Assembly (NCBI RefSeq): GCF_900091475.1
Contig: NZ_FMIB01000002.1
Coordinates: forward strand, 5,456,001-5,520,000
Source of the DNA: Micromonospora chersina
GTDB lineage: Bacteria; Actinomycetota; Actinomycetes; Mycobacteriales; Micromonosporaceae
Direction: 5' to 3'
Length of the DNA stretch: 64,000 nt
In this document: piece after piece, positions 2,281 to 27,560 of the stretch
How positions within the stretch are numbered: the first letter of the stretch is position 1
Layout: each line of letters begins with the position of its first letter
The notes under the pieces: generated by a model
What the model was told of the DNA's origin: nothing
Seen by the model: only the letters and a program-made list of their open reading frames with translations
The model's database searches: none
Program-made: the position numbers and the translations under genes

Positions 2281-2298
2281 ACTGAACGGTAACTTAAA
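2281..2298. promoter_or_regulatory. Ethylmalonyl-pathway dyad operator, copy 1 (ecm)
   Basis: ACTGAACGGTAACTTAAA, read on the minus strand as TTTAAGTTACCGTTCAGT, matches the dyad found before five other acyl-CoA genes here. It ends 8 bp before the ecm ATG and overlaps a -10-like TAAACT (2295-2300). A bound regulator would cover the promoter, consistent with repression. Binding is inferred from sequence recurrence only. Confidence 0.7.
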
Positions 2299-2300
2299 CT
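2295..2300 (+). promoter_or_regulatory. -10 element of a probable leaderless ecm promoter
   Basis: TAAACT fits the actinobacterial TAnnnT -10 consensus. It is separated from the ATG at 2307 by six bases, which would put the transcription start at or next to the start codon. No Shine-Dalgarno is present between it and the ATG, so a leaderless message is likely. Confidence 0.5.
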
Positions 2301-2306
2301 CCGGCC

Positions 2307-4313
2307 ATGGACGAGAAGGCTCCTTCGGGGCGGCTGCCCGAGCGTGACCGGCCCTGGGTGATGCGCACCTACGCCGGGCACTCCTCCGCCACGGCCACCA
2401 ACGCGCTCTTCCGCCGCAACCTCGCGAAGGGGCAGACCGGTCTCTCGGTCGCCTTCGACCTGCCCACCCAGACCGGCTACGACCCGGACCACGAGCTGGC
2501 CACCGGCGAGGTGGGCCGGGTGGGCGTGCCGGTGGCGCACCTCGGCGACATGCGGGCCCTCTTCGACGGCATCCCGCTCGCCGAGATGAACACCTCGATG
2601 ACCATCAACGCGCCGGCCATGTGGCTGCTCGGCCTCTACGGCACGGTCGCCGCCGAGCAGGGCGCCGAGCTGGCCCGCTGCGCCGGCACCACGCAGAACG
2701 ACATCATCAAGGAGTACCTGTCCCGCGGGACGTACATCTTCCCGCCGGCGGCTTCGCTGCGGCTGACCGCCGACATCATCGCGTACACCCTGCGCGAGAT
2801 GCCGAAGTGGAACCCGGTCAACATCTGCTCGTACCACCTCCAGGAGGCCGGCGCGACGCCCGTGCAGGAGGTCGGCTTCGCCCTGGCCACCGCGGTCGCC
2901 GTGCTCGACCGGGTACGCGACTCCGGCCAGGTGCCCGCCGAGCGGATGGGCGACGTGGTCCAGCGGATCTCCTTCTTCGTCAACGCCGGCGTGCGCTTCG
3001 TCGAGGAGATCGCCAAGATGCGCGCGTTCGGCGCGCTCTGGGACGAGATCACCCGCGACCGGTACGGCGTGGAGAACCCGAAGCAGCGCCGCTTCCGGTA
3101 CGGCGTCCAGGTCAACTCGCTGGGCCTCACCGAGGCGCAGCCGGAGAACAACATCCAGCGCATCGTGCTGGAGATGCTCGGCGTCACCCTGTCCCGGGAC
3201 GCCCGGGCCCGGGCCGTGCAACTGCCCGCCTGGAACGAGGCGCTCGGCCTGCCCCGTCCGTGGGACCAGCAGTGGTCGCTGCGCATGCAGCAGGTGCTGG
3301 CGTACGAGTCGGACCTGCTCGAATACCCGGACCTGTTCGACGGCTCGCACGTGATGACCGCGCTTGTCGACGACATCGTCGCCGGGGCCCGGGTCGAGTT
3401 GGAGAAGGTGCTGGAGATGGGCGGCGTGGTGGCCGCCGTGGAGACCGGCTACCTCAAGAGCGCCCTCGTCGCCTCGCTGGCCGACCGGCGTCGGCGGATG
3501 GAGTCCGGCGCCGACGTGGTGGTCGGCGTCAACCGGTTCACCGAGACCGAGCCGTCGCCGCTGACCGCGGCCGGCGCCGAGGCCATCGAGCAGGTCGACC
3601 CCGCCGTCGAGGCGGCCGCCGCCACCGCCGTACGCGAGTGGCGGGCCGGCCGGGACACGGCGGCCGTGGACGCGGCACTCGCCCGGCTGCGCGCGGACGC
3701 CGCGACCACGACGAACCTCATGCCGGCGACGCTGGAGTGCGTCCGGGCCGGGGTGACCACCGGCGAGTGGGCCGGCGCGCTGCGCCAGGTGTTCGGCGAG
3801 TACCGGGCGCCCACCGGTCTGGCCGGCGCGGCCGGCGCCGGCGGCGACCCCGGCCTGGGCGCGGTCCGGGAGCGGGTCGCCGCCACCGCCCGCGAGCTGG
3901 GCAGCGGCCGGCTGCGGCTGCTCGTCGGCAAGCCCGGCCTGGACGGGCACTCCAACGGCGCCGAGCAGATCGCGGTACGCGCCCGCGACGCCGGCTTCGA
4001 GGTGGTCTACCAGGGCATCCGGCTGACCGCCGGGCAGATCGTGGCGGCCGCCGTGGAGGAGGACGTCGACCTGGTCGGCCTCTCGGTGCTCTCCGGCTCG
4101 CACCTGGCCGCCGTGCCGGCTGTGCTGGACGGGCTGCGCGCCGCCGGGCGGGCCGACCTGCCCGTGGTGGTCGGCGGCATCATCCCGGCGGTCGACGCGG
4201 ACGCGCTCCGGGCCGCCGGTGTCGCCCGGGTGTTCACGCCGAAGGACTTCGCGCTGACCGGCATCATCGACGACCTGGTCACCGTCATCCGGGAGTCCAA
4301 CGGCCTGTCCTGA
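2307..4313 (+). CDS. ecm: Ethylmalonyl-CoA mutase (MeaA), coenzyme B12-dependent
   Basis: 668 aa single-chain acyl-CoA mutase converting ethylmalonyl-CoA to methylsuccinyl-CoA. The N-terminal TIM-barrel catalytic domain (about 1-500) begins almost immediately at the RTYAGHSSATATN segment. The C-terminal cobalamin domain carries the DxHxxG base-off motif as D546-G-H548-S-N-G551. At the two specificity positions it has Tyr22 and Arg140 (EYLSRGTY), as in methylmalonyl-CoA mutase and unlike the Phe/Gln of isobutyryl-CoA mutase. The short N-terminus and AGHS in place of the AGFS of methylmalonyl-CoA mutase match the MeaA group as I know it. Other ethylmalonyl-CoA pathway genes lie further right, and the operator at 2281 ties this gene to them. 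A different mutase specificity is possible but less likely. Confidence 0.88.
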   Translation: MDEKAPSGRLPERDRPWVMRTYAGHSSATATNALFRRNLAKGQTGLSVAFDLPTQTGYDPDHELATGEVGRVGVPVAHLGDMRALFDGIPLAEMNTSMTINAPAMWLLGLYGTVAAEQGAELARCAGTTQNDIIKEYLSRGTYIFPPAASLRLTADIIAYTLREMPKWNPVNICSYHLQEAGATPVQEVGFALATAVAVLDRVRDSGQVPAERMGDVVQRISFFVNAGVRFVEEIAKMRAFGALWDEITRDRYGVENPKQRRFRYGVQVNSLGLTEAQPENNIQRIVLEMLGVTLSRDARARAVQLPAWNEALGLPRPWDQQWSLRMQQVLAYESDLLEYPDLFDGSHVMTALVDDIVAGARVELEKVLEMGGVVAAVETGYLKSALVASLADRRRRMESGADVVVGVNRFTETEPSPLTAAGAEAIEQVDPAVEAAAATAVREWRAGRDTAAVDAALARLRADAATTTNLMPATLECVRAGVTTGEWAGALRQVFGEYRAPTGLAGAAGAGGDPGLGAVRERVAATARELGSGRLRLLVGKPGLDGHSNGAEQIAVRARDAGFEVVYQGIRLTAGQIVAAAVEEDVDLVGLSVLSGSHLAAVPAVLDGLRAAGRADLPVVVGGIIPAVDADALRAAGVARVFTPKDFALTGIIDDLVTVIRESNGLS

Positions 4314-4399
4314 GGGGCGTCCGCGCTTCCCGCGTGGCCGTCGGACCCGGCGTCCGAGGTCCGTCCGGGCCGGCGGTGTCAGGCCCTGCCTCCGGCGGG

Positions 4400-4425
4400 G
4401 TCAGGCCGCCTCCGGCGGGCCTGAC
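4400..4425. terminator. Possible shared hairpin between convergent ecm and DUF1540 genes
   Basis: GTCAGGCC pairs with GGCCTGAC across a 10-nt loop between two converging genes. A partly repeated GGGTCAGGCC/CCTCCGGCGG context surrounds it. There is no U-tract, so termination activity is uncertain. Confidence 0.35.
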
Positions 4426-4430
4426 TCCGG

Positions 4431-4727
4431 TCAGCGGCTGGCGTAGGTCTGGCAGTCCGCCAGGTCCATGTCCGGGCCGACGGTGATCGCCGGGGCGTGA
4501 CACTCCAGGTCCGAGTTGTGCCGGCAGTCCGCCCGCTGGCAGGCGCCCACCTGGGCGAGCGTCTGCTCGACGCCGCCGCGCACCGGCATCTCGATGAAGG
4601 TGTGGCAGTGCGCGTGGTCGCTGCTGCCGATCGTGATCGCGAAGGCGTGGCAGTCGTTGGTGTGGTTGTAGGCGCAGGACCTGACGGCGCACTCCTGGAC
4701 CCGGGGCATCTCCATCGACGCGGTCAT
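4431..4727 (-). CDS. Tandem DUF1540 cysteine-rich protein
   Basis: 98 aa soluble protein with two copies of the DUF1540 pattern: C..4..C.YN....C.A..I followed by a fourth Cys near an HTF or QTY. Copy 1 spans about residues 10-45 (ECAVRSCAYNHTNDCHA) and copy 2 about 62-95 (GACQRADCRHNSDLECHAP). The regular spacing suggests metal binding, possibly zinc, but function is unknown. The ATG at 4727 is preceded by AGGAGG with nine bases spacing. Longer in-frame starts upstream lack this site and would add a low-quality Arg/Gly-rich extension. Confidence 0.85.
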   Translation of the reverse strand: MTASMEMPRVQECAVRSCAYNHTNDCHAFAITIGSSDHAHCHTFIEMPVRGGVEQTLAQVGACQRADCRHNSDLECHAPAITVGPDMDLADCQTYASR

Positions 4728-5420
4728 CTCTCCGGCCCTCCTCTGGACGTCAGCCACAAATGTAGGCATTCGTCCGGTCTTCGACCGCAGATCCGCCCCT
4801 GGATCACGCTGTCGGGTGCCCCCGCCGCCCGGCCGTCCGCCCTGTCCGGCAGTGCGGGCTCGTCCGGGCGGCGGCCTTCGCTCGCCTGCGGGGTGGGCAA
4901 GCCGGATAAAACCCAAGGGGTACGCGAAACGCCGACTCCACCGGGCTTCGCCCGGCTACCGGTGCCCGATGAGCGCGACCGCCCAGCGCCCCGCCCTCGG
5001 TAGCCGGCCTGGAATGGACGGAATGTCAGCTTTACGCGTCGCCCCCGACCGGTGAGTGGAACGCCCTGTATGTCTCCGGGGCCGGGATACCCACATGGCG
5101 TTCCACCGACCGAGGTCGTCTGCGCCGGATGTCCGTTTCCGGGGTGGTCGGCGGCACTCTGGCGGTGGAATGGCGGGCGGGTGGGGGTCGTTGTATGCCC
5201 GTGCACGATCGAGGAGGACGGCCCGCCGACGTGGGTGTCCCGGGCCCGGAATGATGGTGGGCCGCCGGTCGTTGTACATGATCCCGGCGCGACGAAGAGG
5301 CCCCACCCCGCACGCCGGATGATCCCCCAAGACTTTCCCCTTTTGAGCGCCTGACGGTGCTTGCGCACACGCTGACCCCCATCGGCACTGTGCGCCAACC
5401 CCCGAATGGAGCTTTCCCCC
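4728..5420. other. Gene-free 690-bp intergenic region with imperfect repeats
   Basis: No frame here shows coding quality, and short open frames on both strands are artefacts. Two direct copies of a ~65-80 bp unit begin with GGAAT at about 5167 and 5248 and share ...GGTCGTTGTA followed by an ACGA.GAGG block. A 10-bp perfect inverted repeat, GTGGAACGCC/GGCGTTCCAC, brackets about 5055-5108. A 20-bp block TCCGGGGCCGGGATACCCAC near 5075 recurs inverted near 5227-5246 with two mismatches. The last ~60 bp before 5421 presumably contain the promoter and long leader of the secreted protein gene. Confidence 0.5.
4874..4905 (-). repeat. Dispersed intergenic repeat, copy A
   Basis: Read on the minus strand this contains CCCCGCAG-GCGAGCGAAGG preceded by CCGGCTTGCC. 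The same arrangement occurs in the thiolase-meaB gap at 25041-25074. It is an intergenic repeat family, judged from two copies in this window. Confidence 0.45.
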
Positions 5421-5969
5421 ATGAACACGATGCTGCGTAAGAGCGTTCTCGGTATTGCTGGTCTGGCTTTCACCGGTGGTGTGTTCGCCGGTCCGATCGC
5501 CGCCCACGCCGACGCCGCCCCCGTGCAGGGCACCAAGCCGGTCGCGGTGAGTGTGCAGGGCGCGCAGTCGCACATCGACCTGAACGGCGAGCAGACCGCC
5601 AACGCCAAGGCGATCATCGCCGCGACGAAGAAGGCCGGTCTGCCGGAGCGGGCGGCGGTCATCTCGATCGCCACGTCGCTGCAGGAGTCGAAGCTGGAGA
5701 ACCTGGGTCACCTCGGCGACCGCAATGACCATGACTCGCTGGGCCTGTTCCAGCAGCGCCCGTCCTCGGGTTGGGGCACGCCGGAGCAGATCACCGACCC
5801 GGAGTACTCGACGCTTGCGTTCCTGAAGGGTCTGAAGCAGGTTGACGGGTGGCAGGACATGCCGCTGACCGAGGCCGCCCAGACCGTGCAGGTCTCGGCC
5901 TACCCGGATGCGTACGCGCAGTGGGAGCAGCAGGCCGCCGACATCGTCGCCCACAACTGGAACAGCTGA
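5421..5969 (+). CDS. Secreted lysozyme-like/transglycosylase-fold protein
   Basis: 182 aa with an N-terminal signal peptide (residues 1-32, basic MNTMLRKS then a hydrophobic stretch ending at AHADA). The mature domain has AVISIATSLQESKLENLGHL then DHDSLGLFQQRPSSGWGTPEQI, a block seen in actinobacterial secreted proteins related to soluble lytic transglycosylases. The Glu in QESKL sits where the catalytic acid of that fold would be. A role in cell-wall turnover is inferred. The ATG at 5421 has GGAG about eight bases upstream; the in-frame ATG at 5406 lacks a ribosome site and would weaken the signal peptide. Codon choice is less GC-extreme than its neighbours (for example GGT for Gly), suggesting high expression. 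Confidence 0.8.
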   Translation: MNTMLRKSVLGIAGLAFTGGVFAGPIAAHADAAPVQGTKPVAVSVQGAQSHIDLNGEQTANAKAIIAATKKAGLPERAAVISIATSLQESKLENLGHLGDRNDHDSLGLFQQRPSSGWGTPEQITDPEYSTLAFLKGLKQVDGWQDMPLTEAAQTVQVSAYPDAYAQWEQQAADIVAHNWNS

Positions 5970-5979
5970 CACAAGCACG

Positions 5980-6010: not shown

Positions 6011-6018
6011 CGGCGTCT

Positions 6019-10819: not shown

Positions 10820-10837
10820 CCTTAGCCGCCGTTCAAT
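10820..10837. promoter_or_regulatory. Ethylmalonyl-pathway dyad operator, copy 2 (3-hydroxybutyryl-CoA dehydrogenase)
   Basis: CCTTAGCCGCCGTTCAAT fits the shared dyad, with the left half CCTTAGC identical to the icmA copy and CGTTCA conserved on the right. It lies 31 bp before the GTG start of the dehydrogenase. This is the most divergent of the six copies. Confidence 0.6.
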
Positions 10838-10868: not shown

Positions 10869-12659
10869 GTGGCGCGCGAGTTCACCAGTGTGGGTGTGGT
10901 GGGTCTGGGCACCATGGGTGCCGGCATCGTCGAGGTGTTCGCCCGCAACGGCATCGACGTGGTGGCCGTCGAGATCTCCGCGGCCGCCGTGGAGCGCGGC
11001 CGGGCCACCCTCACCGGCTCGACGGACCGGGCGGTCGCCAAGGGCAAGCTCGCCGAGGCCGACCGCGACGCGCTGCTGGCCCGGGTGGACTGGCAGGTCG
11101 GGCTGGACGCCCTGCACTCGGTGGACCTGGTGATCGAGGCGGTGCCCGAGCACCTGGACCTGAAGCAGCGGATCTTCGCCGAGCTGGACCGGGTCTGCAA
11201 GCCCGAGGCGATCCTGGCCACCAACACCTCCTCGCTGAGCGTCACCGAGATCTCGGTCGCCACCACCCGGCCGAACCAGGTCATCGGCATCCACTTCTTC
11301 AACCCGGCGCCGGTCATGAAGCTGGTCGAGGTGGTCCGCACCGTGGTCACCTCCGCCGACGTGGTGGCCGACGTGGAGGCGCTCTGCGAGCGGCTCGGCA
11401 AGGTCGACGTCACCATCAGCGACCGGGCCGGGTTCATCGCCAACGCGCTGCTCTTCGGCTACCTCAACCACGCGGTGAGCATGTTCGAGTCCCGCTACGC
11501 CACCCGCGAGGACATCGACGCCGCCATGAAGCTCGGCTGCGGCCTGCCCATGGGCCCGCTCGCGCTGATGGACCTGATCGGCCTCGACACCGCGTACGAG
11601 ATCCTGGACACCATGTACCGGCGCGGCGGCCGCGACCGCCGGCACGCCCCGGTGCCGCTGATCAAGCAGATGGTCACGGCCGGCCTGCTCGGCCGGAAGT
11701 CCGGCCGCGGTTTCTACACCTACGAGCGGCCGGGCTCCCCGGTGGTCGTACCCGACGAGCACACCCCGGTGACCACGGGCGCCGCGCTCGCCGACGGCGC
11801 CCGGGCGATTGCCAAGGTCGGCGTCGTCGGCTCCGGGACCATGGCCACCGGCATCATCGAGGTCTTCGCCAAGGCCGGCTACGAGGTCATCTCGGTGACC
11901 CGGGGCGCGGAGAAGTCCGCCAAGGTCTGCGAGGCGGTCAAGACCTCGCTGAACAAGGGCGTGGTGCGGGGCAAGCTGAGCGAGGAGGACCGGGACGCCG
12001 CGCTCGGCCGGGTCACCTGGTCGGCCACCCTCGACCACCTGGCCGACGTCGACCTGGTCGTCGAGGCGGTGATCGAGGAGCTGAGCGTCAAGAAGGCCCT
12101 GTTCGCCAGCCTCGACGAGATCTGCAAGCCGGGCGTCGTGCTGGCTACCACCACCTCGTCGCTGCCGGTGATCGACGTGGCGATGGCCACCCAGCGGCCC
12201 GCCGACGTGATCGGCCTGCACTTCTTCAACCCGGCGCCGATCATGCCGCTGGTGGAGATCGTGCAGACCATCCGCACCTCGGCGGAGACCAGCGCCACCG
12301 CCCGGGCGGTGTGCGCGGCGCTGGGCAAGACCGGCGTGGTCTGCGGCGACCGGTCCGGCTTCATCGTCAACGCGCTGCTCTTCCCGTACCTGAACGACGC
12401 GGTGAAGATGCTGGAGGCCAGCTACTCGACGGCCGACGACATCGACTACGCCATGAAGCTCGGCTGCGGTTACCCCATGGGCCCGTTCGAGCTGCTCGAC
12501 GTGGTCGGCCTGGACGTCTCGCTGGCCATCCAGCGCGAGCTCTACCTGGAGCTGCGCGAGCCGGGCTTCGCCCCCGCGCCGCTGCTGGAGCACCTGGTCA
12601 CCGCCGGCTACCTGGGCCGCAAGAGCGGCCGCGGTTTCCGCGACCACACGAAGCGCTGA
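10869..12659 (+). CDS. Tandem-duplicated 3-hydroxybutyryl-CoA dehydrogenase
   Basis: 596 aa made of two complete 3-hydroxyacyl-CoA dehydrogenases fused head to tail (about 1-290 and 312-596). Each has a Rossmann domain and a C-terminal dimerisation domain. The role is NAD(P)H-dependent interconversion of acetoacetyl-CoA and 3-hydroxybutyryl-CoA. Half 1 has GLGTMG (12-17), NTSSLS, IGIHFFNPAP and ALLF after FIAN. Half 2 has GSGTMA (from 321), TTSSLP, IGLHFFNPAP and FIVNALLF. Half 2 has lost the third glycine of the dinucleotide motif, so it may use another cofactor or be mainly structural. GTG 10869 has GGGGAGG six bases upstream. The operator at 10820 places it with ccr, ecm and the thiolase. 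Confidence 0.9.
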   Translation: MAREFTSVGVVGLGTMGAGIVEVFARNGIDVVAVEISAAAVERGRATLTGSTDRAVAKGKLAEADRDALLARVDWQVGLDALHSVDLVIEAVPEHLDLKQRIFAELDRVCKPEAILATNTSSLSVTEISVATTRPNQVIGIHFFNPAPVMKLVEVVRTVVTSADVVADVEALCERLGKVDVTISDRAGFIANALLFGYLNHAVSMFESRYATREDIDAAMKLGCGLPMGPLALMDLIGLDTAYEILDTMYRRGGRDRRHAPVPLIKQMVTAGLLGRKSGRGFYTYERPGSPVVVPDEHTPVTTGAALADGARAIAKVGVVGSGTMATGIIEVFAKAGYEVISVTRGAEKSAKVCEAVKTSLNKGVVRGKLSEEDRDAALGRVTWSATLDHLADVDLVVEAVIEELSVKKALFASLDEICKPGVVLATTTSSLPVIDVAMATQRPADVIGLHFFNPAPIMPLVEIVQTIRTSAETSATARAVCAALGKTGVVCGDRSGFIVNALLFPYLNDAVKMLEASYSTADDIDYAMKLGCGYPMGPFELLDVVGLDVSLAIQRELYLELREPGFAPAPLLEHLVTAGYLGRKSGRGFRDHTKR

Positions 12660-20664: not shown

Positions 20665-22020
20665 TCAGTGCCCGCGGAACCGGTTGATCGCGGTTTCGTG
20701 CCGGGCGCGCAGCGCGGTGTCCCGGACGCCGAGACCGTCGGCGGGCGCCAGGCAGCGCACGCCGACCTTGCCCTGGTGCGCGTTGCGGTGCACCTCGTAC
20801 GCGGCCTGGCCGGTCTGCTCCAGCGGGTAGGTCTTCGACACGGTCGGGTGCACCTTGCCCAGCGCCACGAGGCGGTTGGCCTGCCAGGCCTCGTGGTAGT
20901 TGGCGAAGTGGCTGCCGACGATCCGCTTGAGGTGCATCCACAGGTAGCGGTTGTCGTACTGGTGCAGGAAGCCGCTCGTGGAGGCGCAGGTGACGATGGT
21001 GCCGCCCTTCTTGGCGACGTAGACGCTGGCGCCGAAGGTCTCCCGGCCGGGGTGCTCGAAGACGATGTCCGGGTCCTCGCCGCCGGTCAGCTCGCGGATC
21101 CGCTCCCCGAACCGGCGCCACTCGTCCTGGTCCTGGGTCTCCTCGTCCTTCCAGAACCGGAAGCCCTCGGCGGTCCGGTCGATGACCAGCTCGGCGCCCA
21201 TCTTCCGGCACAGCTCGGCCTTCTCCGGCGAGGAGACCACGCAGACCGGGATGGCCCCGCCGTTCAGCGCCATCTGGGTGGCGTAGCCGCCGAGGCCGCC
21301 GGAGGCGCCCCAGATCAGCACCACGTCGCCCTGCTTCATGTTCGCCCCGTGGTGGGACACGAGCTGCCGGTACGCCGTGGAGTTGACCAGCCCCGGGCTG
21401 GCCGCCTCCTCCCAGCTCAGGTGGCGCGGCTTCGGCATGAGCTGGTTGGCCTTGACCACGGCCAGCTCGGCCAGGCCGCCGAAGTTGGTCTCGAAGCCCC
21501 AGATCCGCTGCTGCGGGTCGAGCATGGTGTCGTCGTGGCCGGCGGCGTCCTCCAGCTCCACCGAGAGGCAGTGCGCGACCACCTCGTCGCCCGCCTTCCA
21601 GCGGGTCACCCCGGGCCCGGTCCGCAGCACCACGCCGGCCGCGTCCGACCCGACCACGTGGTACGGCAGGTCGTGCCGGCGGGTCAGCTCGGAGAGCCGG
21701 CCGTAGCGCTGGAGGAACTTGAAGGTGGGCAGCGGCTCGAAGATGCTGGTCCACACGGTGTTGTAGTTGATGGCGCTGGCCATCACCGCGACGAGCGCCT
21801 CGCCGGGGCCCAGCTCGGGGGTGGGCACCTCCTGGACGTGCAGCGCCTTGCGCGGGTCCTTGTCCCGGGTGGCCATGCCGTCGAACATGCGGGTGTCCTC
21901 GGCGCGGACCACCACGCCCCGGTAGCTCTCCGGTACCGGCAGGCCGGCGAGGCCGGCGAGTTCCCGCTCCGGCTGAGCGGAGCCCTCCGCCGCCATGATC
22001 GCTTCAAGGATGTCCTGCAC
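20665..22020 (-). CDS. ccr: Crotonyl-CoA carboxylase/reductase
   Basis: 451 aa NADPH-dependent enzyme that reductively carboxylates crotonyl-CoA to (2S)-ethylmalonyl-CoA, the committing step of the ethylmalonyl-CoA pathway. It is a medium-chain dehydrogenase with the nucleotide loop WGASGGLGGYA. Residues known to hold CO2 are all present: Asn in the AINYNTVW segment, Phe-Glu in WGFETNFGG and His in GSHFANYHE. GTG 22020 has GGGAGG five bases upstream and gives the N-terminus (V)QDILEAI typical of actinomycete Ccr. The longer frame to 22119 has no ribosome site. The leader of about 130 nt begins at the operator-bearing promoter at 22150-22172. Confidence 0.95.
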   Translation of the reverse strand: MQDILEAIMAAEGSAQPERELAGLAGLPVPESYRGVVVRAEDTRMFDGMATRDKDPRKALHVQEVPTPELGPGEALVAVMASAINYNTVWTSIFEPLPTFKFLQRYGRLSELTRRHDLPYHVVGSDAAGVVLRTGPGVTRWKAGDEVVAHCLSVELEDAAGHDDTMLDPQQRIWGFETNFGGLAELAVVKANQLMPKPRHLSWEEAASPGLVNSTAYRQLVSHHGANMKQGDVVLIWGASGGLGGYATQMALNGGAIPVCVVSSPEKAELCRKMGAELVIDRTAEGFRFWKDEETQDQDEWRRFGERIRELTGGEDPDIVFEHPGRETFGASVYVAKKGGTIVTCASTSGFLHQYDNRYLWMHLKRIVGSHFANYHEAWQANRLVALGKVHPTVSKTYPLEQTGQAAYEVHRNAHQGKVGVRCLAPADGLGVRDTALRARHETAINRFRGH

Positions 22021-22149
22021 GGTGACCTCCCGTTCGTTGCGCACCCGCACCGGGCGGGCAGGGGTGCTGCCATCGTCGGCGCCGGTGCGACGGGACCGCC
22101 ATGTCGGCAATCGACACATCCGGCACCGGTCGCACTCCTGTGGGGCGGG

Positions 22150-22172
22150 ACGTTACTGAACGGTAGCTAGGG
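22150..22172. promoter_or_regulatory. ccr promoter with dyad operator, copy 3
   Basis: The dyad ACTGAACGGTAGCTAGGG (22155-22172; minus strand CCCTAGCTACCGTTCAGT) fills the gap between a -10 TAACGT (minus strand, 22150-22155) and a -35-like TTCCGG. The plus-strand text TTACTGAACGGTA is identical to copy 1 at ecm. Placement between the promoter boxes suggests repression. Confidence 0.7.
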
Positions 22173-22269
22173 CCGGAAGTCCTCTGTGAAAAACTGCATC
22201 CACCGATGCGTGGAGCTGTCCGTGGGAACGTGAAAACGCGCAGTGCCGCGCCGTGTCCCAGGAAGTAGG

Positions 22270-22309: not shown

Positions 22310-22786
22310 TCAGTGACCGGTGGCGGCGGGCTCGACCAGTTCGACAAGGACGCCGCCGGCGTCCTTCGGGTGGACGAAGTTGATCCGCGAGTCGGCGGTG
22401 CCCCGCTTCGGCTTCTCGTAGAGCAGCCGGACGCCGCGCTCGCGCAGCGCCGCGCAGGCCGCGTCGATGTCGGTCACCGTGTACGCGACCTGCTGCACGC
22501 CCGGCCCGTTGCGGTCCAGGAACTTGGCGATCGTCGAGGACGGCGACAGCGGGGCGAGCAGTTGCACGCAGCCGCCCTCGGCGGTCGGCCCGACGGCCAG
22601 CATCGCCTCGCGTACGCCCTGCTCCTCGTTGGTCTCGGTGTGCACGCAGCGCATGCCGAAGGTGCGCTCGTAGAAGTCGATCGCGGCGTCCAGGTCCGCC
22701 ACGGCGATCCCGACGTGGTCGATGCGGCGCAGGCCGATGTCGGTGGCGTGGTCGGCAGCGGGCTCGACGGGGGAGTTCTCAGCCAT
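22310..22786 (-). CDS. mce: Methylmalonyl-CoA/ethylmalonyl-CoA epimerase
   Basis: 158 aa VOC-fold enzyme interconverting the 2R and 2S forms of methylmalonyl-CoA and, in this pathway, ethylmalonyl-CoA. Paired beta-alpha-beta-beta-beta modules span about 22-85 and 92-155. Metal ligands are recognisable as His24 (RIDHVGIAV), Gln in [10 protein letters not shown] and Glu in VELVEP. The third ligand position has QQVAYTV instead of the His of many homologues, which is usual for actinobacteria. ATG 22786 lies 13 bp from operator copy 4, with CAGACT as a -10-like box six bases from the ATG and no Shine-Dalgarno, so the message is probably leaderless. Confidence 0.92.
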
Positions 22787-22798: not shown

Positions 22799-22816
22799 GC
22801 CGAACAATCGTTCAGG
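22799..22816. promoter_or_regulatory. Ethylmalonyl-pathway dyad operator, copy 4 (mce, possibly bidirectional)
   Basis: GCCGAACAATCGTTCAGG matches the dyad. On the plus strand, 22801-22830 is nearly identical to 23779-23809 before the thiolase (two substitutions and one inserted base). This site may therefore drive rightward transcription into the two small genes at 23006 and 23351 as well as leftward mce. Confidence 0.7.
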
Positions 22817-23005
22817 CGTACAGGTCGGCAATCTCACGCCTCCTCCTAACGGGCCACCCCGAACGAGGTCCTCGGGCGGGCCTCCGCCGTACACCCGAGC
22901 CGGCGCCGGCCGCGCCGCGATCGTCGTGCTGCACGGACGATGCCCGCCGAGCAGGGTGGCGAGGACCATCGAACCGGCATGAACAGCAGCAGAGGAGCGG
23001 TCGGC

Positions 23006-23320
23006 ATGACGCTGGAGCAGTGGGCGGCGGCCGGCGTCGTGCTGGGCGCGATGCTGAGCGCGCTGACCCTGGCCGTGACGGTGAGCCGGCCGCTGCGCCG
23101 GCTGGCCCGGCAGAACGAGGAGTTCCGGCAGGACTGGTACGGGGTGCCCGCGAGACCGGGCCACGACGCCGTCGCGGGGGTGCCGGAGCGGTTGCGGCGG
23201 ATCGAGAGCCGTCTCGACGGGGTGGAGAGCCGCCTCGACGACCACCTCCGGTCGCCGCACGGCGGTCAGCTCAGTCCATCGATCGTTCGGCATATGCGAA
23301 CCCGGACGGAGCAAGGTTGA
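23006..23320 (+). CDS. Small single-pass membrane protein, unknown function
   Basis: 104 aa. One transmembrane helix lies near the N-terminus (about 8-29, [20 protein letters not shown]), followed by a charged cytoplasmic segment with [16 protein letters not shown] and a short coiled coil ([20 protein letters not shown]). ATG 23006 has GAGGAG eight bases upstream. The gene sits between mce and the thiolase, 30 bp before another small gene, and downstream of the rightward face of operator copy 4. I do not recognise a family. Membrane association of a pathway complex is possible but is speculation. Confidence 0.65.
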
Positions 23321-23350
23321 TCTGCAACTTGCACCCGGTGAAGAGTACCG

Positions 23351-23674
23351 ATGGTGAGTTCCCTGTCACGCCCCGTCGCCGCCATCTGGATCCCCGCCCA
23401 CGTCGACCCGATCGAACCCCACCTCATGGCCTGCCTGGACCACACGAGGCGATGCCGCTACGACCTCCTCGGGATCGTCACCACCGCACCGTGGGACGAG
23501 GTCCGGCAGATGATGCTCGACGGCACCGTCGACGTGGTGGTGGTCGCCGCGCGGGAGCACCTCCCGCCGGACCGCACCCCGCGGATCGAGGTGGCCGCGC
23601 AGGGGACCCACCCGTCGGCGTCGTCGCCCCGGGGCCCGGTGCCGCCGCGCCGGCGCCGCCCGCACCAGGGCTGA
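23351..23674 (+). CDS. Small hypothetical protein, weak resolvase-fold resemblance
   Basis: 107 aa with strong third-position GC, so it is probably real. The core [19 protein letters not shown] through [19 protein letters not shown] and [19 protein letters not shown] alternates strands and helices like the N-terminal domain of serine recombinases. No catalytic Ser is evident and there is no DNA-binding domain. The last 25 residues are Pro/Arg-rich. The start ATG 23351 has GAAGAG five bases upstream. It follows the membrane protein gene by 30 bp, so they are likely co-transcribed. Confidence 0.55.
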
Positions 23675-23776
23675 CCGCGCGGCCCGGCGGTCAGCCATCG
23701 ACCGTCGTGACCTGGAACGCGTTGCGGACGTGCTCGGGGTCACCGTACGGTCGCGGTTCCCGGCAGATATGGTGCG

Positions 23777-23794
23777 TCCTAACAATCGTTAAGG
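23777..23794. promoter_or_regulatory. Ethylmalonyl-pathway dyad operator, copy 5 (thiolase-meaB)
   Basis: TCCTAACAATCGTTAAGG fits the dyad and is followed by GCGTTACAGGTCGGCA, shared with the copy at 22801-22830. It lies 32 bp before the thiolase ATG. A -10-like TTACAGG follows the site. Confidence 0.7.
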
Positions 23795-23826
23795 CGTTAC
23801 AGGTCGGCACCCCCTCGGAGGCAGGC

Positions 23827-25020
23827 ATGGCTTCGGTGATCGTCAGCGGCGCGCGGACCCCGATGGGGCGCCTGCTGGGCAACCTCAAGGACCTCCCCGC
23901 GACGAAGCTCGGCGGCGTCGCGATCAAGGCGGCGCTGGAGCGCGCCGGCGTGGCCCCGGACCAGGTCCAGTACGTGATCATGGGCCAGGTGCTCCAGGCC
24001 GGCGCGGGCCAGATCCCGGCCCGCCAGGCCGCCGTCGAGGCGGGCATCCCCATGTCCACCCCGGCGCTGACCATCAACAAGGTCTGCCTCTCCGGCCTGG
24101 ACGCCATCGCCCTGGCCGACCAGCTCATCCGGGCCGGCGAGTTCGACATCGTGGTGGCCGGCGGCATGGAGTCCATGACCAACGCCCCGCACCTGCTGCT
24201 CGGCCAGCGCTCCGGCTACAAGTACGGCGACGTGACGGTCAAGGACCACATGGCCCTGGACGGCCTCACCGACGCCTGGGACTGCTGCTCGATGGGCGAG
24301 TCCACCGAGCGCCTCGGGGCGAAGCACGGCATCACCCGCGAGGAGCAGGACGCGTTCGCCGCGGCCAGCCACCAGCGCGCCGCCGCCGCCCAGAAGAACG
24401 GCCACTTCGCCGACGAGATCACCCCGGTGATCATCCCGCAGCGCAAGGGCGACCCGCTGGTGATCAGCGAGGACGAGGGCATCCGTCCGGACACCACCGC
24501 GGAGTCGCTGGGCAAGCTCCGCCCCGCGTTCACCAAGGACGGCACCATCACGGCCGGCAGCTCCTCGCCGATCTCCGACGGCGCCGCCGCGGTGGTCGTC
24601 ATGAGCAAGGCCAAGGCCAAGGAGCTGGGGCTCACCTGGCTGGCCGAGATCGGCGCCCACGGCAACGTGGCCGGCCCGGACAACTCCCTGCACTCGCAGC
24701 CGTCCAACGCCATCAACCACGCGCTGAAGAAGGCCGGCCTGGCCGTCTCCGACCTCGACCTCATCGAGATCAACGAGGCGTTCGCCCAGGTCGGCATCCA
24801 GTCCGCGCGGGACCTCGGCGTCAGCACCGACAAGGTGAACGTCAACGGCGGCGCCATCGCGCTCGGCCACCCGATCGGCATGTCCGGCGCCCGGCTGGTG
24901 CTCACGCTGGCGCTGGAGCTCAAGCGGCGGGGCGGCGGCACCGGCGCGGCCGCGCTCTGCGGCGGCGGCGGCCAGGGCGACGCGCTGATCATCCACGTCC
25001 CGAACGGCGCCGAGAGCTGA
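23827..25020 (+). CDS. atoB: Acetyl-CoA C-acetyltransferase (acetoacetyl-CoA thiolase)
   Basis: 397 aa biosynthetic-type thiolase condensing two acetyl-CoA to acetoacetyl-CoA, the first step feeding the pathway. All catalytic residues are present: nucleophile Cys87 ([11 protein letters not shown]), His348 ([10 protein letters not shown]) and Cys378 (ALCGGGGQG). The NEAF motif of the active site is visible in [14 protein letters not shown] 23827 has GGAGG five bases upstream. It is followed 61 bp later by meaB in the same direction, probably one operon under operator copy 5. Confidence 0.93.
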
Positions 25021-25022
25021 CC

Positions 25023-25078
25023 GTGAGCGCGAGGAGTGAGCCGGGTCTCCGAGCCCCGCAGCCGCGAGCGAAGGCAGC
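25023..25078 (+). repeat. Dispersed intergenic repeat, copy B
   Basis: Begins GTGAGCGCGAGGAGTGAGCC and ends CCCCGCAGCCGCGAGCGAAG. The right half matches copy A at 4874-4905 on the opposite strand. It fills almost the whole thiolase-meaB gap without a terminator-like stem, so the operon is presumably not interrupted. Confidence 0.45.
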
Positions 25079-25081
25079 ACC

Positions 25082-26086
25082 GTGACCGACGATGTCCAGA
25101 ACGTCCCGGCGGCGGCCACCGGCTCGGTGCGCCGCAGCCGGGACGTACCCCTGCTTGTCGAGCGGGCCCGCGCGGGCGACCCCCGCGCGGTGGCCCGGCT
25201 GATCACCCTTGTCGAGTCCGGCGACGAGGTGCTGCCGCAGGTCGCGGCGGCCCTCGCCCCCTACGCCGGGCACGCCCAGGTGGTCGGCCTGACCGGCTCG
25301 CCGGGCGTGGGCAAGTCGACCACCACGAACGAGCTGGTCCGGGCGCTGCGGGCGCGCGGCCACCGGGTGGGCGTGCTGGCCATCGACCCGTCCAGCCCGT
25401 TCACCGGCGGGGCGATCCTCGGTGACCGGGTCCGGATGCAGGACCACGCCACCGACCCCGGCGTCTACATCCGCTCGATGTCCAGCCGGGGCCACCTCGG
25501 CGGGCTCTCCGCGGCCACGCCGCAGGCGGTGCGGGTGCTGGAGGGCGCCGGCTGCGACGTGGTGCTGGTGGAGACCGTCGGCGTCGGCCAGGCCGAGGTC
25601 GAGGTGGCCTCCCTGGCCGACACCACGCTGGTGCTGCTGGCCCCGGGCATGGGCGACGCCATCCAGGCCGTGAAGGCCGGCATCCTGGAGATCGCCGACG
25701 TCTTCGTGGTCAACAAGGCCGACCGGGACGGCGCCGACGCCACCGTGCGCGACATCCAGGGCATGATCGCCCTGGGCGAGCGAGGCCCGGGGGAGTGGCG
25801 GCCGCAGGTGGTCCGCTCGATCGCCGCGCGCGGCGAGGGCATCGACGACATCGCCGCCGCGATCGACAAGCACCGCGACTGGCTGGAGCGCCACGGCGAG
25901 CTGCGCCGCCGCCGGGAGGCGCGGGCCGCCGCCGAGATCGAGGCCATCGCGCTGGGCACCCTGCGGGACCGGATCGGCTCCCTGCGCGACGGTACGCAGC
26001 TGCCGACCCTCGCGGCGAAGGTGGCCGAGGGCGCCATCGACCCGTACGCCGCCGCCACGGAACTGCTGGAGCAGTTGGGCGCCTGA
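25082..26086 (+). CDS. meaB: MeaB, G-protein chaperone of B12-dependent acyl-CoA mutases
   Basis: 334 aa GTPase of the MeaB/ArgK/MMAA group. It gates cofactor loading and protects methylmalonyl-CoA-type mutases. Walker A is GSPGVGKST (72-80); DPSSPFTGGAILGDRVRM and VETVGVGQAE mark switch regions; the base-specificity motif is NKAD. The C-terminal helical dimerisation region ends AATELLEQL. Known clients are methylmalonyl-CoA and isobutyryl-CoA mutases. Here icmA lies 1.5 kb downstream and ecm 20 kb away, so either could be the client. Confidence 0.93.
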   Translation: MTDDVQNVPAAATGSVRRSRDVPLLVERARAGDPRAVARLITLVESGDEVLPQVAAALAPYAGHAQVVGLTGSPGVGKSTTTNELVRALRARGHRVGVLAIDPSSPFTGGAILGDRVRMQDHATDPGVYIRSMSSRGHLGGLSAATPQAVRVLEGAGCDVVLVETVGVGQAEVEVASLADTTLVLLAPGMGDAIQAVKAGILEIADVFVVNKADRDGADATVRDIQGMIALGERGPGEWRPQVVRSIAARGEGIDDIAAAIDKHRDWLERHGELRRRREARAAAEIEAIALGTLRDRIGSLRDGTQLPTLAAKVAEGAIDPYAAATELLEQLGA

Positions 26087-26159
26087 CCGCCGGCGGGTTT
26101 CGACCGGCTGCCGCCAAGGGCACAGTGCCACCGACGGCCCGGAGGCGGGGGGGTGGCGC

Positions 26160-27002
26160 ATGGCGGCGGACGAGGCTCCCGCGGGGCCGGACCGGGCACC
26201 CGTCTCCGCCGGCTGGGGTGGCCGGCGGCTGCCGGTGTCGGCACTGCCGGGCCTGGCCCTCTTCGTCGTGCTGGCGGTCTGCGGCCTCGTCGGGCTGAGC
26301 GGCGGAATCGCGGACGGCGACGGGCCGCTGATCGTGGGTGGGGCCTTCCTGCTCCTTCTCTTCGGGTCCCTGGCCGCGTTCCTCGTCGCGGCCTCGTCGC
26401 GGGGCTCCGGCGCCGGGACGACCCTGGTGCCGTCGCCGGGCGGTGGCGGCCGTGCGGTGCGCTTCGCCTACTCGACCGTCACCTACGTCCTGTTCGGCGC
26501 GGTGGTCGTGAGCTGCGCCGTCGCCCTGCTCGGCTTCGCCGTGGCGCTGGGGGTCCGGGGCGGCGCCCTCAGCCGCGTGATCGCGGTCGTCCTGGCCGGT
26601 GCGGCAGTGCTGCTCGGCTGGTACGTCGTGGTGATGGTCCGCCACGCCCCCGGCGGCCTGCTGCTCTCCCCGGCCGGGATCGCGCACGCGGGGCTGACCA
26701 CCTTCTACTCCGTGCCGTGGGTGGCCGTGCACGCGGTGGAGGCGCGGAGGCTCGGCACGACGGTGCTGGTGGTGAAGGCGGAGCCGTCGCCGCAGAGCGT
26801 GCTGCGCCGGTACACGGGCCGGTTCGACACGGGGGAGCTGCGGTTCCTGCCCTTCCTGGTCGTGCGCACCTACTGGCTGGCCGCCGACCGGGAGGCCGTG
26901 CTGTCCGCGCTGGCCTTCTACCTGGCCCGTCCCGAGCTGCGGGGCGAGCTGGCCACCCCGGAGGCGGTACGCCGGATCGCCGAGGGGCGTACCCGGGCCT
27001 GA
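26160..27002 (+). CDS. Four-helix membrane protein with PH-like C-terminal domain
   Basis: 280 aa. Four transmembrane segments are predicted at about 28-45, 57-78, 103-130 and 139-158. A soluble C-terminal part follows with LLLSPAGIAHAGLTTFYSVPW and AVHAVEARRLGTTVLVVK, the strand pattern of bacterial PH-like membrane proteins. I do not recognise a named family. It lies 73 bp after meaB in the same direction, but no functional tie to the pathway is evident. Confidence 0.72.
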   Translation: MAADEAPAGPDRAPVSAGWGGRRLPVSALPGLALFVVLAVCGLVGLSGGIADGDGPLIVGGAFLLLLFGSLAAFLVAASSRGSGAGTTLVPSPGGGGRAVRFAYSTVTYVLFGAVVVSCAVALLGFAVALGVRGGALSRVIAVVLAGAAVLLGWYVVVMVRHAPGGLLLSPAGIAHAGLTTFYSVPWVAVHAVEARRLGTTVLVVKAEPSPQSVLRRYTGRFDTGELRFLPFLVVRTYWLAADREAVLSALAFYLARPELRGELATPEAVRRIAEGRTRA

Positions 27003-27087
27003 GGGGTCCACTCCGGATCCCGGCCGGCTAGTACGCTCGCACCGGCCCGGCGACGGTCGTGGGGCCGGAGACGTGGGCGGGTAGGGC

Positions 27088-27501
27088 ATGGCTGACGAGG
27101 CGACCCAGGAGCTGACGGTGACCCCGAACGCGGTGGCGGGCGGTGCGACGCACGTCTCCGACGAGGTGGTGGAGAAGATCGCGGTGGCCGCCGCGAAGTC
27201 GGTGCCCGGGGTGGCCGAGCTCGGGGGCGACGTGGCCCGCTTCTTCAACGCCGTGCTGGACCGGGTCGGGCTGGACCAGGTCGGCGACGCCCGGCGCGGC
27301 TGCTCGGCGCATGTCACCGACGGCGCGGCCGTGGTCAACCTGGTCATCGTGATCGGCGGCGGCCGGCCGGTGCCCGAGGTGACCGACGCGGTGCGGGTCG
27401 CGGTGACCTCGGCGGTCGAGGCGTACGGGCTGCGGGTCGACGAGATCAACATCCGGGTCGACGACGTGGCGCTGGGCGGGCCGGTGGCGCCCTCGGCCTG
27501 A
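27088..27501 (+). CDS. Asp23/Gls24 family envelope stress protein
   Basis: 137 aa alkaline-shock-protein-23-like protein. The first strand/helix pair is THVSDEVVEKIAVAAAKSVPGVAELG and the second is AAVVNLVIVIGGGRPVPEVTDAVR, ending with YGLRVDEINIRVDDV. Such proteins are associated with the membrane under cell-envelope stress. It is a single gene here and its nearest partner, the membrane protein at 26160, could anchor it (inference). Confidence 0.85.
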   Translation: MADEATQELTVTPNAVAGGATHVSDEVVEKIAVAAAKSVPGVAELGGDVARFFNAVLDRVGLDQVGDARRGCSAHVTDGAAVVNLVIVIGGGRPVPEVTDAVRVAVTSAVEAYGLRVDEINIRVDDVALGGPVAPSA

Positions 27502-27527
27502 CCCGGGTTACCGGCCGGTACGCACTT

Positions 27528-27560
27528 CCTTAGCGATCGTTCAGGCTGGCGTTCTACACT
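27528..27560 (+). promoter_or_regulatory. icmA promoter with dyad operator, copy 6
   Basis: CCTTAGCGATCGTTCAGG (27528-27545) is the best dyad of the set: seven of nine base pairs match around a central CGATCG. A -10 TACACT follows at 27555-27560, so the operator covers the -35 position. The gene has a normal leader with GAGGAGG before the ATG. Confidence 0.75.

What the first reader, a model, noticed from the sequence alone, without database searches (positions are those of the whole stretch)
2281..27545. A six-promoter ethylmalonyl-CoA/isobutyryl-CoA regulon defined by one 18-bp dyad
The same imperfect palindrome (consensus near CCTnAnCnATCGTTnAGG) sits at the promoters of ecm (2281-2298), the tandem 3-hydroxybutyryl-CoA dehydrogenase (10820-10837), ccr (22155-22172), mce (22799-22816), the thiolase-meaB operon (23777-23794) and icmA (27528-27545). 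In ccr it fills the -35/-10 spacer, in icmA it covers the -35 region and in ecm it overlaps the -10, all fitting a repressor. The genes are dispersed, on both strands, yet all act on C4/C5 acyl-CoAs. The dyad type is that of TetR-family acyl-CoA-responsive regulators, but none is encoded here.
Basis: partly seen in the sequence, partly recalled or inferred. Interest (0 to 1): 0.85.

Follow-up and report, generated by a model that had tools for sequence, protein, structure and literature searches.

The report
Two acyl-CoA regulons, not one

Summary
The dyad is real at four of six places: 3-hydroxybutyryl-CoA dehydrogenase (hbd), mce, thiolase-meaB and icmA. "Motif A" is CCTKAACGnnCGTTMAGG, conserved at these promoters across Micromonosporaceae beyond chance. 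In this genome it recurs 27-61 bp before accA1, accD1, ilvE, a second biotin carboxylase, icmB, a MaoC hydratase, a second hbd and ppdk. The likely regulator is a TetR protein 1.24 Mb away, beside accA1-hmgL-accD1: a homologue of BkaR and, by synteny, AccR. Of 56 relatives with Arg in the recognition helix, 52 carry GTTAA-N6-TTAAC upstream; of 65 with His, 20 carry CTKAA-N6-TTMAG, 2 the G-type, 3 are ambiguous and 40 show neither there. One change on the tree suffices. At ccr and ecm the conserved element is "motif B", GnTACYnnnnRGTAnC: exact at 14 of 15 ccr, within one mismatch at 13 of 15 ecm promoters. A CRP-like dyad lies upstream. Motif B otherwise marks fatty-acid-oxidation genes. So: a known repressor type with an apparently enlarged target set, interleaved with a regulon whose regulator is unknown. 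All binding is inferred.

The parts
27528..27545 (+). Motif A operator at icmA (CCTTAGCGATCGTTCAGG), covering the presumed -35 region; TACACT 9 bp downstream
   Evidence: within 3 mismatches in 27 of 28 icmA promoters of the family (expected 0.08)
22799..22816 (-). Motif A operator at mce; on the minus strand it abuts CAGACT + 6 nt + ATG, so it fills the presumed -35/-10 spacer of a leaderless promoter
   Evidence: motif A within 3 mismatches in 17 of 30, within 4 in 24 of 30 (expected 0.1 and 0.8), AGACT in the 8 bases after the best hit in 28 of 30
23777..23794 (+). Motif A operator at thiolase-meaB, apparently a duplicate of the mce operator
   Evidence: in the 29 relatives mce and thiolase are divergent with neighbouring starts; 23 of those 29 have one site of at most 4 mismatches there
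10820..10837 (+). Motif A operator at the tandem 3-hydroxybutyryl-CoA dehydrogenase gene (weak copy here)
   Evidence: within 4 mismatches in 24 of 28 promoters (expected 0.77), within 3 in 14 of 28 (expected 0.17)
22152..22167 (-). Motif B dyad at ccr (GCTACCGTTCAGTAAC), followed by GT so that it ends in TAACGT, a possible -10 element
   Evidence: Exact match to GnTACYnnnnRGTAnC in 14 of 15 ccr promoters (expected 0.0)
2278..2293 (+). Motif B dyad at ecm, next to TAAACT + CCGGCC + ATG (presumed leaderless)
   Evidence: At most 1 mismatch in 13 of 15 ecm promoters (expected 0.23)
27507..27522 (+). Motif B-like dyad (GTTACCGGCCGGTACG, 1 mismatch) just upstream of the icmA motif A site
   Evidence: motif B within 1 mismatch in 8 of 28 icmA promoters (expected 0.33)
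22186..22199 (-). CRP-like dyad upstream of ccr (ATGCAGTTTTTCAC, 2 mismatches to GTGA-N6-TCAC)
   Evidence: 20 of 30 ccr and ecm promoters within 1 mismatch (expected 0.51)
2257..2270 (+). CRP-like dyad upstream of ecm (GTGTGGTTTTCCAC, 2 mismatches)
2307..4313 (+). ecm, presumed ethylmalonyl-CoA mutase (acyl-CoA mutase family)
   Evidence: TIGR00641, 451 bits, cut-off 304; found in the same 15 of 30 genomes as the close ccr orthologue
10869..12659 (+). tandem 3-hydroxybutyryl-CoA dehydrogenase (hbd)
   Evidence: two 3HCDH_N and two 3HCDH stretches
20665..22119 (-). ccr, crotonyl-CoA carboxylase/reductase
   Evidence: TIGR01751, 608 bits, cut-off 379
22310..22786 (-). mce, methylmalonyl-CoA epimerase
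   Evidence: TIGR03081, 139 bits, cut-off 115
23827..25020 (+). acetyl-CoA C-acyltransferase (thiolase)
   Evidence: TIGR01930, 462 bits, cut-off 241
25082..26086 (+). meaB GTPase
   Evidence: TIGR00750, 340 bits, cut-off 241
27597..29285 (+). icmA, acyl-CoA mutase large subunit (isobutyryl-CoA mutase by context)
   Evidence: TIGR00641, 650 bits, cut-off 304; 28 of the 30 genomes give a full close orthologue (83% identity or more)

Best explanation
The window holds promoters of two interleaved acyl-CoA regulons. Regulon A (hbd, mce, thiolase-meaB, icmA here; accA1, accD1-acyl-CoA dehydrogenase, ilvE, a second biotin carboxylase, icmB, a MaoC hydratase, a second hbd and probably ppdk elsewhere) is repressed by a TetR-family dimer of the BkaR/AccR kind. 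That gene lies 1.24 Mb away beside accA1-hmgL-accD1-acyl-CoA dehydrogenase. The dimer sits on an 18-bp dyad in the core promoter (mce: -35/-10 spacer; icmA: -35) and is released by a short-chain acyl-CoA, switching on branched-chain amino acid, propionyl-/isobutyryl-CoA and C4 acyl-CoA breakdown together. Regulon B (ccr, ecm and fatty-acid-oxidation genes) has a different dyad, TACY-N4-RGTA, and an unidentified regulator, with a CRP-like site upstream at ccr and ecm. Shown by sequence: the motifs, their conservation and genomic distribution, the TetR synteny and the operator/helix association. Inferred: promoter elements, binding, repression, ligand, and that this TetR is the protein that reads motif A.
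For: Motif A at orthologous promoters within 3 mismatches, observed against shuffles: icmA 27 of 28 (0.08), hbd 14 of 28 (0.17), tetR itself 12 of 29 (0.07), mce 17 of 30 (0.1). In 61 genomes the stricter pattern gives 39 hits against 1 control hit. One locus per genome, 29 of the 37 hits in relatives, was read: 24 of the 29 sites lie 26-61 bp before icmA (17), accA1 (3), the accD1-linked acyl-CoA dehydrogenase, icmB, ilvE or the second hbd (1 each). Own-genome sites at accD1, accA1, ilvE, biotin carboxylase and MaoC, and icmB, second hbd and ppdk. TetR gene beside the operon; at least two of accA1, accD1, hmgL and the acyl-CoA dehydrogenase near it in 67 of 80 loci. Operator type against helix residue: Arg 52 G-type, 4 none, of 56; His 20 C-type, 3 ambiguous, 2 G-type, 40 none, of 65 (union). 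Published analogues: BkaR, core GTTA(N)T(N4)A(N)TAAC (passages of PMC3920632); AccR, GTTAA-N6-TTAAC, accD1A1-hmgL-fadE4 (passages of PMC10933834). Independent expression data: in Streptomyces albus L-valine raises isobutyryl-CoA mutase (log2 5.2), the carboxylases XNRR2_4211/4212 (up to 4.7) and the AccR homologue XNRR2_4213, while crotonyl-CoA carboxylase/reductase falls (log2 -2.1) (passages of PMC8176718), as a split would predict. Motif B: for ccr and ecm, 17 against 3 control.
Against: No binding data, and no expression data for this organism. Motifs A and B were drawn up from some of the same promoters that were then counted, and the genomes are relatives, so the promoter counts are not independent tests. 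In the genomes of this genus examined, motif A is not upstream of tetR; in this genome and some others it lies between tetR and accA1, so autoregulation is not evident here. The Arg/His association needs only one change on the tree, and in 40 of 65 His proteins no site of either type was found upstream of tetR. The TetR scores 228 against the NCBIfam SACE_7040 cut-off of 250. Three ccr promoters and one ecm promoter in relatives do carry motif A within 1 mismatch besides motif B, and the B sites of this genome contain one intact A half-site (CTGAACG), so cross-talk is possible. Of the 29 read loci 5 have no recognised target. Of 30 mce promoters two (L062, L063) have no comparable site and four have 5 mismatches. 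Own-genome motif A at 3 mismatches is only 44 against 22 in the control.
Confidence: 0.85

Rival explanations
1. One regulon: the same TetR also reads the ccr and ecm sites, as degenerate copies of motif A using the intact CTGAACG half.
For: In this genome ccr and ecm carry ACTGAACGGTA, a near-perfect A half-site. In relatives a clear A site (1 mismatch) lies near ccr in L124, L127 and L128 and near ecm in L147. Within 4 mismatches motif A is found at 8 of 15 ccr and 4 of 15 ecm promoters.
Against: Across the 15 genomes the half-site is often lost (GCTACTGGGCAGTAAC, GCTACCCATGAGTAAC, GTTACCGCTTAGTAAA and others) while the outer TAC...GTA dyad is kept: 14 of 15 exact at ccr, 13 of 15 within 1 mismatch at ecm. 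The ecm dyad also occurs in flipped orientation in different genera. In S. albus ccr moves against icm and the carboxylases on L-valine (passages of PMC8176718).
Confidence: 0.08
2. Motif A is read by another TetR or non-TetR factor, and the neighbouring TetR only controls its own operon.
For: Motif A is absent from the tetR promoter in the genomes of this genus examined. Another TetR gene carries CGGTCAG-type dyads (L009, L010).
Against: In other Micromonosporaceae the same motif lies about 50-110 bp before this tetR. Its relatives outside the family carry the sister motif at the same place, and that sister motif is the published operator of BkaR and AccR.
Confidence: 0.07
3. Motif B is a GlnR/PhoP-type site or a promoter element rather than the operator of a TetR-like dimer.
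For: GnTAC-N6-GTAnC has the 5-6-5 layout of GlnR boxes (recalled), and at ccr the dyad ends in a TAnnnT -10-like hexamer.
Against: Symmetric Y/R extension of both halves, flipped orientation at ecm in different genera, and a target set of fatty-acid-oxidation genes point to a dimeric acyl-CoA regulator.
Confidence: 0.15

Closest known systems
BkaR (MSMEG_4718 / Rv2506) of mycobacteria
   Same: TetR repressor of an operon with carboxylase subunits, acyl-CoA dehydrogenase and hydratase; 16-bp dyad bound as a dimer; a thiolase gene as an outlying target (passages). The best solved-structure hits of our TetR are 4g12 and 6yl2, E 3e-42; that these are Rv2506 is recalled.
   Different: Operator half-site is GTTAAT there and CTKAACG here; the targets named in the passages seen include no mce, meaB, icmA, icmB or ilvE.
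AccR of Streptomyces avermitilis
   Same: TetR repressor of accD1A1-hmgL-fadE4, the kinds of genes that flank this TetR; same N6 spacing of the two TTAA boxes; Streptomyces homologues of this TetR have GTTAA-N6-TTAAC upstream, exact or with one mismatch. The S. albus AccR homologue XNRR2_4213 has the next locus tag to carboxylases XNRR2_4211/4212.
   Different: Outer base of the half-site (G there, C here), Arg in place of His in the recognition helix of Streptomyces homologues, and a target list given in a review as accD1A1-hmgL-fadE4, echA8, echA9 and fadE2. The original paper is not held.
PccD of Saccharopolyspora erythraea
   Same: Said to resemble the S. albus AccR homologue and to control the branched-chain dehydrogenase operon (passage of PMC8176718).
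   Different: Its printed motif (T/ATGACGG/CTGT/CTGT/A, table in PMC10933834) does not look like motif A; no sequence comparison was made here.
SACE_7040 of Saccharopolyspora erythraea
   Same: Best NCBIfam model for this TetR (228 bits).
   Different: Below the curated cut-off of 250; described in print as a morphogenesis regulator (passages of PMC3825060).
Crp of Streptomyces
   Same: CRP-like dyads upstream of motif B at ccr and ecm. Crp raises ccr, epi and atoB expression in S. cinnamonensis (passages of PMC7074812).
   Different: Binding not tested; the gap to motif B differs between ccr (18-19 bp in 14 of 15) and ecm (7-13 bp). The CRP consensus is recalled.
FdmR and other fatty-acid-degradation TetR repressors
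   Same: Motif B marks fatty-acid-oxidation genes, as such a repressor would.
   Different: Motif and homologue not compared; FdmR is known here only from citing passages.

Membership tests
BkaR/AccR-type TetR repressor | TetR-family HTH protein homologous to BkaR/AccR | tested here: met
   PF00440 62 bits; PDB chains 4g12 and 6yl2 E 3e-42 (recalled to be BkaR). No AccR sequence was compared directly.
BkaR/AccR-type TetR repressor | gene beside accA1/accD1/hmgL/acyl-CoA dehydrogenase | tested here: met
   (own locus, names by analogy), 67 of 80 loci with at least two of the four at 45% identity (accA1 74, acyl-CoA dehydrogenase 59, hmgL 33, accD1 22)
BkaR/AccR-type TetR repressor | 16-bp dyad with two TTAA-like boxes spaced by 6 | tested here: met
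   CTKAA-N6-TTMAG
BkaR/AccR-type TetR repressor | exact published operator letters GTTAA-N6-TTAAC | tested here: not met
   Outer base is C/G here; GTTAA-N6-TTAAC within 1 mismatch in 0 of 30 loci L264-L293, against 45 of 47 loci L297-L343. Filed as a variant, not as AccR or BkaR itself.
BkaR/AccR-type TetR repressor | autoregulation through a site in its own promoter | tested here: inconclusive
   Motif A within 3 mismatches upstream of tetR in 12 of 29 family genomes; in this genome it lies between tetR and accA1 instead
BkaR/AccR-type TetR repressor | release by short-chain acyl-CoA | not testable with these tools
   Needs purified protein
SACE_7040 equivalog (NCBIfam NF050111) | score at or above 250 bits | tested here: not met
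   228.3 bits
Single ethylmalonyl-CoA/isobutyryl-CoA regulon with one dyad | same dyad conserved at ccr and ecm | tested here: not met
   Motif A within 3 mismatches at 3 of 15 ccr and 1 of 15 ecm promoters (within 4: 8 and 4, mostly the B dyad off-centre); motif B at 14 of 15 (exact) and 13 of 15 (within 1)
CRP-controlled promoter (ccr, ecm) | GTGA-N6-TCAC-like dyad at a regular place | tested here: met
   20 of 30 within 1 mismatch, 30 of 30 within 2; expected 0.51 and 5.35. Sequence only; binding not tested.
TetR-type fatty-acid-oxidation repressor reading motif B | identified regulator gene | not tested
   No regulator identified; a TetR beside a DUF6230 gene with a B-like site (L025) is only a lead

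The most novel reading that the evidence does not exclude
In one actinobacterial clade (Micromonosporaceae and a few neighbours) the BkaR/AccR repressor changed its recognition helix (YRHF to YHHF) together with the outer base pair of its operator, and its regulon covers not only leucine/branched-chain degradation but the whole methylmalonyl-/isobutyryl-CoA branch. Meanwhile the carbon-assimilating ethylmalonyl-CoA genes ccr and ecm answer to a second, still unknown fatty-acid-oxidation regulator plus CRP, so growth on fat and growth on amino acids are wired separately through the same C4 intermediates.
Probability: 0.5. Interest if true: 0.6.

Novelty: new variant of a known kind. Interest (0 to 1): 0.5.

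Why it matters
Methylmalonyl-CoA, ethylmalonyl-CoA and isobutyryl-CoA are building blocks for polyketides made by Micromonospora and its relatives (established knowledge). If the reading is right, deleting one TetR gene should raise flux through mce, icmA, icmB and the carboxylases, but not through ccr and ecm, which need a different regulator. The operator/helix switch is also a natural, directly testable case of repressor specificity change.

Tried and rejected
Rejected: a single dyad at all six promoters. Set aside as chance by gene context: A-like hits inside coding regions or before unrelated genes (L003, L008, L208, L209, L211, L212, L214-L217, L236, L238, L240, L241). L009 and L010 (CCTGACCGATCGGTCAG twice before a TetR gene) look like another TetR's own operator. 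Left open: hits before a prolidase-like gene (L213), a secreted-type protein (L210) and a zinc-dependent oxidoreductase (L234). Of the 44 weak hits, 30 were read (8 of them chosen by eye) and 14 were not. All 17 motif B hits were read. Considered: AcrT (motif nttGaTc), PccD and SAV7471 (motifs in the table of PMC10933834); by motif none fits as well as AccR/BkaR.

A slip found on checking: locus L082 is cut short at its left end, so looked in the wrong place for that one mce promoter. One search repeats the mce count with the place mended: 24 of 30 within 4 mismatches instead of 23, AGACT in 28 of 30 instead of 27.

Literature: the listings showed no title or abstract start about a regulator joining icmA, mce, ccr and ecm in actinomycetes. 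The nearest is PMC8176718 (passages), which ties valine, BkdR, icm and ccr expression together in S. albus. Only the held open library was searched, so absence from print is not claimed. The AccR paper was not held. The FdmR paper was seen only in citations. No paper was read whole; all were seen as passages by term search.

Several B-regulon gene names (FadF-like L227, thioesterase L225, SDR L218, aceE-like L239) are by eye from translations; others (EtfB, acyl-CoA dehydrogenases, malic enzyme) rest on family matches below the curated cut-offs. The names accA1, accD1 and icmB are by analogy from family matches and context.

Full report
What was checked. The six 18-mers are where the finding puts them. 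Their symmetry differs sharply: icmA pairs at 14 of 18 positions, mce and thiolase at 12, hbd at 8, ccr at 6 and ecm at 4. A pattern built from the good ones, CCTKAACGATCGTTMAGG with up to 3 mismatches, finds icmA, mce and thiolase in the window (0.01 expected). It finds 12 sites in the 6.68-Mb genome, against 0 for the reversed pattern; 8 of the 12 lie before acyl-CoA or branched-chain amino acid genes. A pattern from the other two, TTACTGAACGGTARCT, finds only ecm and ccr at 0 mismatches genome-wide; at up to 3 mismatches it gives 7 hits on one strand and 6 on the other, against 6 and 5 in the control. Together these suggested two motifs, A and B.

Conservation decides it. Starting from 81 genomes of the family I took 30, those with the 30 best mce matches, this one included, and fetched mce, tetR, icmA, hbd, ccr and ecm loci. 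Motif A within 3 mismatches, with the number expected from shuffles: icmA 27 of 28 (0.08), hbd 14 of 28 (0.17), tetR 12 of 29 (0.07), ccr 3 of 15 (0.03), ecm 1 of 15 (0.05) (dinucleotide shuffles); mce 17 of 30 (0.1, mononucleotide shuffles, which mends one mis-placed locus). Motif B (GnTACYnnnnRGTAnC) is exact at ccr in 14 of 15 (0.0), and within one mismatch at ecm in 13 of 15 (0.23), icmA 8 of 28 (0.33), tetR 7 of 29 (0.25), hbd 5 of 28 (0.30) and mce 0 of 30 (0.18). Rows left out: lower-identity ccr hits L130-L134, the partial icmA L178, the mutase paralogues including L179, and the tetR paralogue L114. The patterns came from some of these same promoters and the genomes are relatives, so these are descriptions of conservation and not independent tests.

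Against the split: within 4 mismatches motif A is found at 8 of 15 ccr and 4 of 15 ecm promoters (expected 0.63 and 0.40). Of those, 5 ccr and 3 ecm hits are the B dyad read off-centre; the other 3 ccr (L124, L127, L128) and 1 ecm (L147) are separate, clear A sites with 1 mismatch. For the split: the centre of the ccr/ecm dyad varies (CGTTCA, TGGGCA, TCGGCA, CCATGA, CGCTTA and others) while TAC...GTA stays, and at ecm the dyad occurs in both orientations in different genera. So the finding's ccr and ecm sites are most simply a chance overlap of an A half-site with motif B.

ccr and ecm are a true pair. The close ccr orthologues (76% identity or more) and ecm (E up to 1e-200) occur in the same 15 of the 30 genomes. 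Upstream of motif B both promoters carry a CRP-like dyad: 8 of 30 exact GTGA-N6-TCAC, 12 more with one mismatch and 10 with two (expected 0.02, 0.49 and 4.84, mononucleotide shuffles). It lies 18-19 bp from motif B at ccr in 14 of 15 and 7-13 bp away at ecm. Crp overexpression raises ccr, epi and atoB in Streptomyces cinnamonensis (passages of PMC7074812).

The motif A regulon in this genome. Besides the window, A sites lie shortly before accD1 (28 bp), accA1 (38 bp), ilvE (29 bp), a second biotin carboxylase (54 bp) and a MaoC gene of the mesaconyl-CoA hydratase type (45 bp). At 3 mismatches with a free centre they also lie before icmB (36 bp), a second 3-hydroxybutyryl-CoA dehydrogenase (61 bp, 1.3 kb upstream of the window) and pyruvate phosphate dikinase (27 bp). 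Distances run to the first possible start codon of the ORF; some genes may start further in. The looser scan gives 44 sites against 22 in the control, so its individual hits need the gene context. In 61 genomes the pattern with free centre and at most 1 mismatch gives 39 hits against 1 control hit. Of the 37 hits in relatives 29 were read, one per genome: 24 sites lie 26-61 bp before icmA (17), accA1 (3), the accD1-linked acyl-CoA dehydrogenase, icmB, ilvE or the second hbd (1 each); 5 have no recognised target.

Promoter geometry. On the minus strand the mce operator runs straight into CAGACT, six bases and the start codon. AGACT follows the best hit in 28 of 30 genomes. The operator would then fill the -35/-10 spacer of a leaderless promoter, which suits a repressor. 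In the 29 relatives mce and thiolase are divergent; their starts are 23-120 bp apart in 28 and overlap, as extrapolated, in one (L081). 23 of the 29 have an A site of at most 4 mismatches there. In this genome the gap has grown to about 1 kb and each promoter has its own copy with similar flanks.

The regulator. The A sites at accD1 and accA1 lie in an operon-like row with a TetR gene (G000:C2:4213235-4213855, minus), 1.24 Mb from the window. It is found in 29 of the 30 family genomes (the one without is 77% complete). Its best solved relatives are 4g12 and 6yl2 (recalled to be Rv2506 = BkaR). BkaR represses accD1-accA1-fadE19-hydratase-citE-bkd and a thiolase through GTTA(N)T(N4)A(N)TAAC and binds as a dimer (passages of PMC3920632). 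AccR of S. avermitilis represses accD1A1-hmgL-fadE4 through GTTAA-N6-TTAAC (passages of PMC10933834); its reported ligands include methylcrotonyl-, propionyl- and acetyl-CoA (passage of PMC8546615). Homologues of our TetR in 80 named loci (the best 80 of a capped list) have at least two of accA1, accD1, hmgL and the acyl-CoA dehydrogenase nearby in 67 of 80. In L297-L343 (Streptomyces, Actinomadura, Pseudonocardia and others) the locus holds GTTAA-N6-TTAAC within one mismatch in 45 of 47. In L264-L293 (nearly all Micromonosporaceae) it does so in 0 of 30, while motif A within 2 mismatches is in 25 of 30 (and in 2 of the 47; the three Glycomyces loci L294-L296 have neither).

A specificity switch. 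The recognition helix reads YRHF (YRYF in L314) in the first group and YHHF in the second. Over the 121 loci with a readable helix (union, which searched stretches of somewhat different length; one of 122 unreadable), 56 have Arg: 52 with a G-type site upstream of tetR and 4 with none. 65 have His: 20 C-type, 3 ambiguous, 2 G-type and 40 none in that stretch. On the tree of 117 of these sequences one change of the residue is enough, support 100/100 (the residue's own column was left in). The association is therefore one correlated change; it is suggestive and not a statistical proof.

Regulon B. GnTACYnnnnRGTAnC gives 17 sites in this genome against 3 in the control. Genes behind them include a FadA-like thiolase, electron-transfer flavoprotein beta, two acyl-CoA dehydrogenases, malic enzyme and ccr (several matches are below curated cut-offs), and by eye a FadF-like protein, a thioesterase and a pyruvate dehydrogenase E1 gene. 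This is largely a fatty-acid-oxidation set; the remaining sites have mixed or unknown neighbours. Its regulator was not found. Motif B also appears at icmA in this genus and near relatives and at some tetR and hbd promoters, so the two regulons overlap.

Outside evidence. That is another genus and other regulators such as BkdR are involved, but icm and the carboxylases moving together and against ccr is what two regulons would give.

Verdict. What looks new here: the enlarged target set, the clade-specific operator variant with its helix change, and the separate B element at ccr and ecm. The regulator itself belongs to a known kind. Nothing here shows binding.

Noticed in passing
22817-23776: The mce-thiolase intergenic gap is about 1 kb here and holds two small ORFs (22940-23320, 23351-23674), while the 29 relatives have neighbouring divergent starts; the operator seems to have been duplicated with the expansion.
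   Followed up: partly
L009/L010 (G000:C2:5399008-5399044): Two tandem CCTGACCGATCGGTCAG dyads before a TetR gene, with transporter-like genes nearby: probably that TetR's own operator, unrelated to motif A.
   Followed up: no
L025:1501-1516 and L229:1501-1516: Motif B-like sites next to two DUF6230 genes, one beside a TetR gene (L025:1611-2375): a possible lead to the motif B regulator.
   Followed up: partly
L237:1994-2011: Motif A-like site 27 bp before pyruvate phosphate dikinase, hinting that gluconeogenesis from amino-acid carbon may be co-regulated; conservation not tested.
   Followed up: no
L239:1821-1836: Motif B site upstream of a pyruvate dehydrogenase E1-like gene (named by eye).
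   Followed up: no
L112, L113 and other tetR loci: In 7 of 29 family genomes a motif B site within one mismatch lies upstream of the presumed motif A repressor gene itself (expected 0.25), suggesting a hierarchy between the two regulons.
   Followed up: no
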